A stretch of DNA of 36,676 bases from Actinomycetota bacterium (GTDB taxonomy: Bacteria > Actinomycetota > Actinomycetes > Nanopelagicales > Nanopelagicaceae). Location of the stretch: NCBI GenBank assembly GCA_016870835.1, contig VGAG01000010.1:1-36676 (forward strand). Direction: 5' to 3'. A program made the translations under genes and the position numbers. The first letter of the stretch is position 1, and each line of letters starts with the position of its first letter. The notes under the pieces are model-generated. The model had not been told where the DNA came from and made no database searches. It saw only the letters and a program-made list of their open reading frames with translations. Of this stretch, positions 29,653-34,936 are shown piece after piece.

Positions 29653-29710
29653 TGATTGGTTGCTTTCAAACTTATCGGCAGTTTCAACGACTGAGACACA
29701 GGCTAGAAAG

Positions 29711-29950
29711 GTGAGGAGGGCGCCAATTCGTGTAGGAACAATTGTGACATGGCGTCACCGTGGCGGAAAGGCATCAGGAAAGATCTTACGAATAGTAAGA
29801 AAGGGGCGATTAAAATTGCCTAACTCAAATTTTTCTCTGAACGCAAACCCGGATGAACCTGTGGCATTGATTGGATTGCTTAAAGAGGGGGACTTGACTT
29901 CTGTTCGGGTTGTTCATCGTCTGAGATCTCTTAAGCGAAAAGCCAAGTGA
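29711..29950 (+). CDS. DUF2945-like (hypervirulence-associated TUDOR-like) small protein
   Basis: 'VGTIVTWRHRGGKASGKILRIVRKGRLKLPNSNFSLNANPDEPVALI...VVHRLRSLKRK' fits the DUF2945 layout. Start uncertain (GTG 29711 or TTG 29660); ends 3 bp before the next gene. Confidence 0.65.
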   Translation: MRRAPIRVGTIVTWRHRGGKASGKILRIVRKGRLKLPNSNFSLNANPDEPVALIGLLKEGDLTSVRVVHRLRSLKRKAK

Positions 29951-29953
29951 AAC

Positions 29954-31171
29954 GTGGCCTTTGATAACTCGTCGCTGAAATTAGTTAATCTCGAGGATGA
30001 TTTACTAGAGATAGTTGAGAGAGATTTTGTCAATCTTTACTCAGGGACTCCCAGTCGTAGTCCCATACCTGGTGGACAAAGTGCGGCAAATAGGGCGCTA
30101 GAGAGCCTTGACATTTCGGGGTATGCCCGCGATCGCTCACAGGTATTGCCCAAAGAGGCGCGGGGAGCCAGCATGCTCTCACCCTATATTCGTCACAACC
30201 TTCTGACTCTCAAGCAGGTGTACGAAGCAGTAAGTAATGCACCTTTCAAAGATCGCCTGAAATATCAAGATGAACTTTTGTGGCAAGAGTATGCCCGCCA
30301 TCTTTACGCCCGAATCGGCGTGAGGCTTTTTGATAATTTACGGTACAACGCTAACCGGGATAGCTCAGGTGCCGGTTGGGAGACAGAGATGCTGTGTATC
30401 AAGAGCGTTGTAGGCGAATTGGAAACAGATGGCTGGTTAGTAAATCAAGCTCGGATGTGGCTAGCCTCGCACTGGAGTGTTCGCAACGATAAAGGCTGGA
30501 TACATGGGCAAGAGGAAATGTTTCGCCACTTGATCGACGGCTCAAGAGCTGCAAATCTTCTGGGTTGGCAATGGAGCGTAGGAGCTGGCACGGGCAGGGC
30601 CTATGGCTTTGCCAGGTGGCAAGTGGAAAAAAGAGCGCCAGGGTTGTGCAAAAGATGTCAGTTGAGATTGGGCTGTCCAATTCAGAACTTTCCGGACGAA
30701 AGAATTCTCAAGCAACTTCCCAGGGAGCCCCTCTTGGAGTCTGATCGCGATTTGGCTGCTACCGCCGGCCCAAAAAAGCCGGAAATTCTTAGTAAGCCTC
30801 GATATGTCCTTTTAACCATTGATTCTTTGGGAGATGGTGATCCAGCGCTAATGGCCAATCCAGGGATTCCGGCAGTGTTCATTTTTAATCAAATGGCTCT
30901 TGCAAAACTACAATTGAGCGCAAAGAGAATAAGTTTTTACCTTGAGACTCTAAAGGATCTTAGTTGTCGACGCGAGCTCAATGTCTTTCTAGGCGATCCT
31001 TATCTGTTTGCGACACAAAATCCAGTAGCAATTACCTTTGCCCCAGTTCCGTCATTTAAAAAGTTTACTCAGCGAGCTGTGACTTATCCCTACCCCTGGC
31101 TCGTTTATCCCCACGGTAAATCTCTCAAAAGCTTCTCCGCCTGGAGGGGGGCAATCACTCTTTCGGTATGA
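29954..31171 (+). CDS. Cryptochrome/photolyase-family protein with N-terminal FAD-binding domain and C-terminal photolyase alpha/beta-like domain
   Basis: N-terminal part: 'GGQSAANRALE...YARDRSQ...GASMLSPYIRHNLLTLKQVYEAV', 'LLWQEYARHLY', 'GWLVNQARMWLASHWSVRNDKGWIHGQEEMFRHLIDGSRAANLLGWQWSVGAGTGRAYGF'. C-terminal part: 'YVLLTIDSLGDGDPAL...AVFIFNQMALAKLQLSAKRISFYLETLKDLSCRRELNVFLGDP...SFSAWRG'. Confidence 0.85.
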   Translation: MAFDNSSLKLVNLEDDLLEIVERDFVNLYSGTPSRSPIPGGQSAANRALESLDISGYARDRSQVLPKEARGASMLSPYIRHNLLTLKQVYEAVSNAPFKDRLKYQDELLWQEYARHLYARIGVRLFDNLRYNANRDSSGAGWETEMLCIKSVVGELETDGWLVNQARMWLASHWSVRNDKGWIHGQEEMFRHLIDGSRAANLLGWQWSVGAGTGRAYGFARWQVEKRAPGLCKRCQLRLGCPIQNFPDERILKQLPREPLLESDRDLAATAGPKKPEILSKPRYVLLTIDSLGDGDPALMANPGIPAVFIFNQMALAKLQLSAKRISFYLETLKDLSCRRELNVFLGDPYLFATQNPVAITFAPVPSFKKFTQRAVTYPYPWLVYPHGKSLKSFSAWRGAITLSV

Positions 31172-34054: not shown

Positions 34055-34650
34055 TTACTTTCGACTTAATTTTTCATACGCGGCGATCTCATTCTTCAAT
34101 TCCTGATACTCCTCACACGAGGTGCCACAAATGTCCTTCAATTTAGCAAGATTGTTCTTTGCTTGGCGAAGCTGCTTCAGTTTAAGAAAGAGCTCGCCCT
34201 GGTATTCCAACGCCCCTAGGTGTTTACTGTCAAGAGAGAGCGCTCTTCGGTAGTACTTCGTTGCATTCTTGATGTCCCCCATATTTCGAGCGGCGAATCC
34301 CGAAAGATTCCAAACCTCCGGATTGTTCTTATCTTCGCTCCGCAACTCCTTAAGAATTTTCTCCGCCTTAACCCAATTCTCTGATTTTAGAAGTGTAAGC
34401 GAGGTAGCCAAGCGCTCCACCAGAGTTAATTTTGTCGGAGTTGGCGTCGGAGTTGGCGTCGGAGTTGGAGTTGGCGTCGGAGTTGGAGTTGGCGTCGGAG
34501 TTGGAGTTGGCGTCGGAGTTGGAGTTGGCGTCGGAGTTGGAGTGGGCGCACAGTAGAGCTATTGCCGCTGGGAGCGGCCTGCGCTGGGTGGATTCCTGCC
34601 ACTACAGTAGAGAGGGCAGTAACACACAAACACGCAACCCAAAATCTCAT
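34055..34650 (-). pseudogene. Secreted TPR protein with Pro-Thr linker, apparently interrupted by a 1-nt frameshift (or base-call error)
   Basis: Signal peptide MRFWVACLCVTALSTVVAGIHPAQA from 34650. The (TP)n repeat runs in frame into the TPR part 'TKLTLVERLATSLTLLKSENWVKAEKILKELRSEDKNNPEVWNLSGFAARNMGDIKNATKYYRRALSLDSK', but signal and linker frames differ by one nt at the GGG run 34544-34546. Confidence 0.65.
34434..34543. repeat. Short tandem repeat: 12- and 18-bp units built from 6-bp blocks, encoding (Pro-Thr)n on the minus strand
   Basis: gtcggagttggc x2, then gtcggagttggagttggc x4, then a partial unit. Confidence 0.95.
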
Positions 34651-34693
34651 ATCGATAAGATAACAGAACGCTCGCAGGACAGTAGCCTTTCCC

Positions 34694-34936
34694 ATGGAGT
34701 TCGTGATGTACACAACCCCCTGGTGCGGTTATTGCAAAAGATTGAAGGCACAGTTAATCGAGATGAGTATTAGCTTCCAGGAGGTCAATATTGAGGAAAC
34801 TCCAGGTGCCGCACAAATTGTAGAGAGAGCAAATGGGGGTAATCAGACCGTTCCAACCTTAATTTTCTCCGATGGAAGCGTCATGACAAATCCTTCCGCA
34901 CGGCAGGTCCAACAGAAACTTGCCAAGTTATCTTGA
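34694..34936 (+). CDS. Glutaredoxin / mycoredoxin-like
   Basis: 'VMYTTPWCGYCKRLKAQL', 'NIEETPGAAQIVERANGGNQTVPTLIFSDGSVMTNPS'. Confidence 0.9.
   Translation: MEFVMYTTPWCGYCKRLKAQLIEMSISFQEVNIEETPGAAQIVERANGGNQTVPTLIFSDGSVMTNPSARQVQQKLAKLS

What the first reader, a model, noticed from the sequence alone, without database searches (positions are those of the whole stretch)
29954..31171. Cryptochrome/photolyase homologue with apparently circularly permuted domains
Canonical photolyases and cryptochromes carry the alpha/beta (antenna) domain first and the helical FAD domain second. Here residues ~1-240 read as the FAD domain (GGQSAANRALE, SMLSPYIR, GWLVNQARMWLASHW, LIDGSRAANLLGWQWS). The last ~130 residues read as the alpha/beta domain: YVLLTIDSLGDGDPAL resembles VWFRRDLRLxDNPAL, AVFIFNQ..LSAKRISFYLETLKDL resembles the SPKR..FL.ESL..L helix, NVFLGDP follows, and terminal SFSAWRG resembles the FTPFWRAW linker. 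The antenna domain thus appears to have moved to the C-terminus. The middle also has a Cys cluster, LCKRCQLRLGCPIQNFP. A permuted antenna or photoreceptor in a putative sunlit-water actinobacterium would be notable.
Basis: partly seen in the sequence, partly recalled or inferred. Interest (0 to 1): 0.8.

Follow-up and report, generated by a model that had tools for sequence, protein, structure and literature searches.

The report
Photolyase with its two domains swapped

Summary
ORF 29954-31171 (+, GTG start, 405 aa) begins with a photolyase FAD domain (PF03441) and ends with a shortened alpha/beta domain related to the photolyase antenna domain (PF00875). The order is shared end to end by 76 aligned homologues from Actinobacteriota, so it is neither a frameshift nor an assembly error. 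Deinococcus relatives show it most clearly: PF03441 first, PF00875 second, and in one strain two overlapping genes in that order. Four invariant cysteines (C148, C232, C235, C241) match the Fe-S ligands of FeS-BCP photolyases. CPD-contact residues and a Trp pair (W182, W205) are conserved. Best explanation: an FeS-containing, domain-inverted CPD photolyase, probably for single-stranded DNA, whose reduced C-terminal domain caps the FAD site rather than harvesting light. This kind is known: NewPHL/SPL proteins (Emmerich 2020; Xu 2021) and cyanobacterial Phr4/Phr5/Phr6 (mBio 2022), the latter with the same C-x2-C-x5-C motif. Apparently new: recognition of the actinobacterial clade as domain-inverted, its unusual invariant pocket residues (Q111, S197, R198, nearly Q165), Deinococcus fused and split forms, and an adjacent rhodopsin gene in Cryobacterium. 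Activity and cofactors were not tested.

The parts
29954..31171 (+). CDS of the domain-inverted photolyase, 405 aa, GTG start, TGA stop
   Evidence: end-to-end homologues
29954..30688 (+). Residues 1-245: N-terminal photolyase FAD domain with the Cys cluster at its end
   Evidence: PF03441 at residues 153-216; class I photolyases over residues 37-218; fold match to class I photolyases
30272..30283 (+). E107 and W110 (A. nidulans E283, W286), CPD-contact residues, invariant
   Evidence: alignment
30395..30397 (+). C148, first predicted Fe-S ligand, aligned with FeS-BCP C351
   Evidence: invariant in 77 sequences; hhalign with L126
30443..30457 (+). N164 and M168 (A. nidulans N349, M353), CPD-type active-site pair
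30497..30499 (+). W182 (A. nidulans W367), electron-transfer tryptophan
30536..30574 (+). Residues 195-207 DGSRAANLLGWQW: FAD-contact motif with S197/R198 (usual D/L), N201, W205, W207
30647..30676 (+). C232-x2-C235-x5-C241, three further predicted Fe-S ligands
   Evidence: invariant in 77 sequences; C232 and C235 align with FeS-BCP C439 and C442; same spacing as Synechococcus Phr4
30689..30802 (+). Residues 246-283: linker between the two domains
   Evidence: AlphaFold2 secondary structure and lower conservation in the alignment
30803..31153 (+). Residues 284-400: shortened antenna-type alpha/beta domain, C-terminal instead of N-terminal
   Evidence: PF00875 in 29 of 60 members; hhalign chain via Deinococcus; model pLDDT 87

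Best explanation
An FeS-containing photolyase of the domain-inverted kind (NewPHL/SPL/Phr6). SHOWN by sequence: photolyase FAD domain first, reduced antenna-type alpha/beta domain second; four cysteines equivalent to the FeS-BCP cluster ligands; conserved CPD-contact residues; two of the three classical electron-transfer tryptophans. INFERRED: the protein binds FAD and a structural [4Fe-4S] cluster; light reduces FAD through W182/W205; excited FADH- donates an electron to a cyclobutane pyrimidine dimer held by E107, W110, N164, M168 and W207 and splits it; the substrate is probably single-stranded DNA, because relatives have that specificity and the genome already has a class I photolyase and an FeS-BCP but apparently no DASH; the C-terminal domain caps the FAD cleft, with little or no light harvesting.
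For: Domain identities and order. Fixed order across Actinobacteriota and in Deinococcus. Fe-S ligands. CPD-type residues: E107, W110, N164, N201, W207 invariant in 77 sequences, M168 in 73. Trp pair W182/W205; Dinoroseobacter NewPHL is also described as having a Trp dyad (PMC8948257). NewPHL/SPL repair CPDs in ssDNA and have inverted topology (PMC13274461). Other photolyases of the genome: class I, FeS-BCP. Well-defined model: pLDDT 91.7, pTM 0.91.
Against: R287, R350 and D382 of A. nidulans photolyase are replaced by Q111, Q165 and S197 in this clade, so substrate or redox chemistry may differ. The Fe-S-bearing cyanobacterial Phr4/Phr5 were suggested by their authors to act on (6-4) lesions. 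No activity, cofactor or spectrum was measured. The genome is about 76% complete, so absence of DASH or CofG is weak. The cap role is recalled from the abstract of Emmerich 2020, which could not be read.
Confidence: 0.68

Rival explanations
1. A blue-light photoreceptor (cryptochrome-like): repair lost, flavin photoreduction used for signalling.
For: Invariant, clade-specific replacement of FAD/substrate-pocket residues (Q111, S197, R198); a class I photolyase and an FeS-BCP are already present; adjacent rhodopsin gene in Cryobacterium.
Against: CPD-contact residues E107, W110, N164 and W207 are invariant, unexpected if repair were lost; characterised inverted relatives are repair enzymes; no signalling domain, and no neighbour conserved across the family.
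Confidence: 0.14
2. A (6-4) photolyase, as suggested for the Fe-S-bearing inverted Phr4/Phr5 of marine Synechococcus.
For: Same four-cysteine set and inverted order as Phr4/Phr6; loss of phr4/phr5 hurt survival after UV-C more than UV-B (PMC9426592).
Against: Active-site pair N164/M168 is CPD-type (the assignment of His/His to (6-4) enzymes is general knowledge); the genome already has an FeS-BCP, the usual bacterial (6-4) enzyme; Fe-S cysteines alone do not set the substrate.
Confidence: 0.1
3. The C-terminal domain is an unrelated Rossmann-like domain (for example universal-stress-protein type) fused to a photolyase FAD domain, so nothing is inverted.
For: Foldseek with the isolated C-terminal model gives a universal stress protein first and class II photolyase second, all weak; the direct hhalign match to class I antennas is only 62%; the window's own C-terminus has no Pfam hit.
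Against: 29 of 60 members hit PF00875 and no competing family recurs; Deinococcus C-termini hit PF00875 (E 2e-4 to 1e-3), align with class I antennas at 95% and with this family at 99%.
Confidence: 0.05
4. Artefact: misassembly, frameshift or chimeric contig joining two gene pieces.
For: None found; the source is a metagenome-derived genome in 49 contigs.
Against: Same order end to end in isolates and complete chromosomes of other laboratories (IMCC25003, IMCC26077, several Cryobacterium strains) and in Deinococcus; the two halves co-vary (Mantel r 0.88).
Confidence: 0.01

Closest known systems
Cyanobacterial Phr6 and split Phr4/Phr5 (Synechococcus/Cyanobium; PMC9426592)
   Same: FAD domain before photolyase domain; four Fe-S cysteines with C-x2-C-x5-C and 85- vs 84-residue spacing to the first; both fused and split gene forms exist, as in Deinococcus here.
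   Different: Sequences could not be fetched, so relationship was not tested directly; here the alpha/beta domain is shortened and the pocket has clade-specific residues. Its authors suggest (6-4) repair.
NewPHL (Dinoroseobacter shibae, Methylobacterium mesophilicum; Emmerich 2020)
   Same: Inverted topology, short C-terminal domain, Trp dyad, CPD-type FAD domain.
   Different: The alphaproteobacterial relatives examined lack the Fe-S cysteines (sequences), their Z-domain shows no significant profile match to this C-terminus, and their FAD domains form a separate clade. Neither characterised NewPHL sequence was itself fetched.
SPL (short photolyase-like; Xu 2021, Rhodococcus fascians; SephrC of S. 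elongatus)
   Same: Described as CPD-repairing relatives of class I/III, with an Fe-S cluster in the proposed ancestor; R. fascians SPL with FAD, Fe-S and CPD activity is from memory. Our family is common in an unnamed actinobacterial family, f4, which may be that of Rhodococcus (10 of 101 genomes; inference).
   Different: [quoted passage not shown] here it is present at the C-terminus. Whether R. fascians SPL belongs to this clade could not be checked.
FeS-BCP / prokaryotic (6-4) photolyases (PhrB, CryB)
   Same: Four Fe-S cysteines: C148, C232, C235 align with C351, C439, C442 of the genome's own FeS-BCP.
   Different: FeS-BCPs have an N-terminal PF04244 domain and normal order; this protein has no PF04244 hit.
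Class I CPD photolyases
   Same: Best sequence and fold match of the FAD half; CPD-contact residues and two of three Trp.
   Different: Opposite domain order; no Fe-S cysteines; R287, R350 and D382 replaced here.

Membership tests
Domain-inverted photolyases (NewPHL/SPL/Phr6) | FAD domain N-terminal to the alpha/beta (photolyase or Z) domain | tested here: met
   same order in 76 aligned homologues
Domain-inverted photolyases (NewPHL/SPL/Phr6) | FAD domain close to class I/III CPD photolyases | tested here: met
Domain-inverted photolyases (NewPHL/SPL/Phr6) | Electron-transfer Trp dyad (reported for NewPHL) | tested here: met
   W182 and W205 invariant; no Trp at the aligned third position in the window, though that stretch aligns poorly
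Domain-inverted photolyases (NewPHL/SPL/Phr6) | Fe-S cysteines (Phr4/Phr6; some SPLs) | tested here: met
Domain-inverted photolyases (NewPHL/SPL/Phr6) | Common clade with the characterised members | tested here: inconclusive
   Groups with Deinococcus at 93/94 with a long-branch warning, alphaproteobacterial relatives on the other side; no characterised sequence could be fetched
Domain-inverted photolyases (NewPHL/SPL/Phr6) | Light-dependent CPD repair in ssDNA | not testable with these tools
   needs an enzyme assay
Class I CPD photolyase | N-terminal PF00875 domain followed by the FAD domain | tested here: not met
   class I of the same genome aligns only over residues 69-215
Class I CPD photolyase | CPD-contact residues E274/W277/N341/M345/W384 (E. 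coli) | tested here: met
   E107, W110, N164, M168, W207
FeS-BCP | N-terminal PF04244 (DPRP) domain | tested here: not met
   no PF04244 match in this protein; the genome's PF04244 protein is another gene
FeS-BCP | Four [4Fe-4S] cysteines | tested here: met
   the fourth (C241 to C455) lies beyond the aligned stretch and is assigned by order

The most novel reading that the evidence does not exclude
The actinobacterial clade is a functionally distinct branch: its replaced, invariant pocket residues (Q111, S197, R198, nearly Q165) and reduced alpha/beta domain make it an Fe-S flavoprotein photoreceptor or a repair enzyme with another substrate, coupled in Cryobacterium to a rhodopsin in one operon.
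Probability: 0.15. Interest if true: 0.65.

Novelty: new member of a known kind. Interest (0 to 1): 0.36.

Why it matters
Domain inversion bears on how photolyases and cryptochromes arose: SPLs have been proposed as ancestors partly because they were described as lacking the alpha/beta domain. This widespread actinobacterial clade, with fused and split Deinococcus relatives, indicates that FeS-type members carry that domain at the other end, which should be checked before SPLs are treated as primitively one-domain. It also adds an untested third photolyase to abundant freshwater bacteria that face strong sunlight.

Tried and rejected
Direct Pfam and NCBIfam of the window's C-terminal 129 aa: no hit. 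Foldseek of the isolated C-terminal model: weak and mixed. A first hhalign ranking ran in global mode and was repeated in local mode. Alphaproteobacterial Z-domain vs this family or class I antennas: no significant profile match, so common origin of the two C-terminal domains is not claimed. Gene context: no neighbour conserved across the family. Viral contigs: no relative by the patterns used. Phage records hold only FAD-half matches (at most 51% of the query), and on plasmids the full order was found only in Deinococcus. Paper search for circular permutation in photolyases: nothing relevant. Emmerich 2020 and Xu 2021 are not held. Genomes of other phyla could not be chosen as search centre.

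Full report
WHAT IS THERE. The ORF at 29954-31171 (+) is intact, 405 aa, GTG start. Its first 245 residues are a photolyase FAD domain: PF03441 at residues 153-216, E 7.7e-7, and class I CPD photolyases in the PDB over residues 37-218. AlphaFold2 with 52 sequences gives mean pLDDT 91.7 and pTM 0.91, and the best PDB fold matches are class I photolyases.

IS THE C-TERMINUS AN ANTENNA DOMAIN? The single sequence is too divergent for Pfam. Four lines support it. (a) Of 60 family C-termini 29 hit PF00875, and no other Pfam family hits more than one. (b) Two of three fused Deinococcus plasmid proteins of the same layout hit PF03441 first and PF00875 second (E 7e-4 and 1e-3), and Deinococcus sp. QL22 has the two halves as overlapping genes in the same order, the second hitting PF00875 at 2e-4. 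(c) hhalign: family C-terminus vs Deinococcus 99.1% (E 4.4e-19); Deinococcus vs class I antenna 95.0% (E 3.9e-8), in register from the first strand; direct 62% (E 7.5e-5); FAD-half control 0.3%. (d) Against 1076 ORFs as single sequences the split Deinococcus gene ranks 1st and class I photolyases 2nd-4th. Structure adds little: the isolated domain (pLDDT 87) finds class II photolyase and universal stress proteins about equally weakly. The Pfam E-values in (a) and (b) are below Pfam's curated cut-off.

IS THE ORDER REAL? It is shared end to end by 51 loci aligned with the window (A1) and 25 more from a phylum sample; 16 of 201 genomes of the window's order (one partial) and 26 of 397 of its phylum, own included, have it. 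The two halves have correlated distances (Mantel r 0.88, 0 of 999 permutations), as expected of one gene. All 23 sampled actinobacterial FAD domains form one clade (100/100), grouped with Deinococcus at 93/94 with a long-branch warning.

CATALYTIC PARTS. Mapped on A. nidulans photolyase (alignment; the chain numbers there are one lower than the usual ones), E283, W286, N349, M353 and W392 are E107, W110, N164, M168 and W207; N386 is N201; W367 and W390 are W182 and W205. All are invariant in 77 sequences except M168 (73 of 77). N/M rather than His/His at 164/168 is CPD-type (general knowledge). R287, R350 and D382 are Q111, Q165 and S197, followed by R198; Q111, S197 and R198 are invariant in all 77, Q165 in 76.

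IRON-SULPHUR. C148, C232, C235 and C241 are invariant. hhalign aligns C148, C232 and C235 with C351, C439 and C442 of the genome's own FeS-BCP (69%, E 4.4e-5); the fourth, C455, lies beyond the aligned stretch and is assigned by order. Synechococcus Phr4 has C169, C254, C257 and C263 (PMC9426592): spacings 85, 3, 6 against 84, 3, 6 here. That a cluster forms is inferred.

CONTEXT. The genome (about 76% complete) also has a class I photolyase, an FeS-BCP and a rhodopsin, but no third PF03441 protein, so apparently no DASH, and no CofG for 8-HDF. A Tudor-like ORF ends three bases before this gene; among fetched loci only the near-identical relative L031 shares it.

WHAT IS KNOWN. PMC13274461 states that NewPHLs or SPLs repair CPDs in ssDNA and have inverted topology, citing Emmerich 2020. 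PMC9426592 describes Phr4/Phr5 and Phr6 with inverted domains and Fe-S cysteines, and Phr7 with a Z-domain. [quoted passage not shown] The two primary papers could not be read; that R. fascians SPL has FAD, Fe-S and CPD activity, and that the NewPHL C-terminal domain seals the FAD site, are from memory of the abstracts.

VERDICT. This is a widespread actinobacterial branch of the known inverted photolyases. Function is inferred: CPD repair most likely, photoreceptor or (6-4) repair possible.

Noticed in passing
L066:5035-5874 (also L068, L071, L072, L073, L083; opposite strand in L070; 3.7 kb away in L069): In eight Cryobacterium loci a microbial rhodopsin gene (PF01036 E 1.1e-39 in L066) lies near the inverted photolyase, in six directly upstream on the same strand (ORFs overlapping or up to 61 nt apart), suggesting a rhodopsin-photolyase operon. 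No paper on it was found.
   Followed up: partly
29660-29950: Small ORF resembling Hva1_TUDOR (PF11160, E 1.2e-4, just below cut-off) ends three bases before the photolyase start; shared only with near-identical L031.
   Followed up: partly
L116:3941-5232: Deinococcus sp. QL22 plasmid carries the FAD and antenna halves as two overlapping genes in inverted order; the second is annotated only as hypothetical protein.
   Followed up: yes
L012 (G105:C50:9536-10717): One family member has an internal TAG stop in an otherwise full-length match: pseudogene or sequencing error.
   Followed up: no
G000:C34, C7, C21: The window's genome also holds a class I photolyase, an FeS-BCP and a rhodopsin, all on other contigs.
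   Followed up: yes
34269-34773: Long low-complexity repeat read as (GV)n, (EL/AS)n or (QLRR)n in different frames.
   Followed up: no
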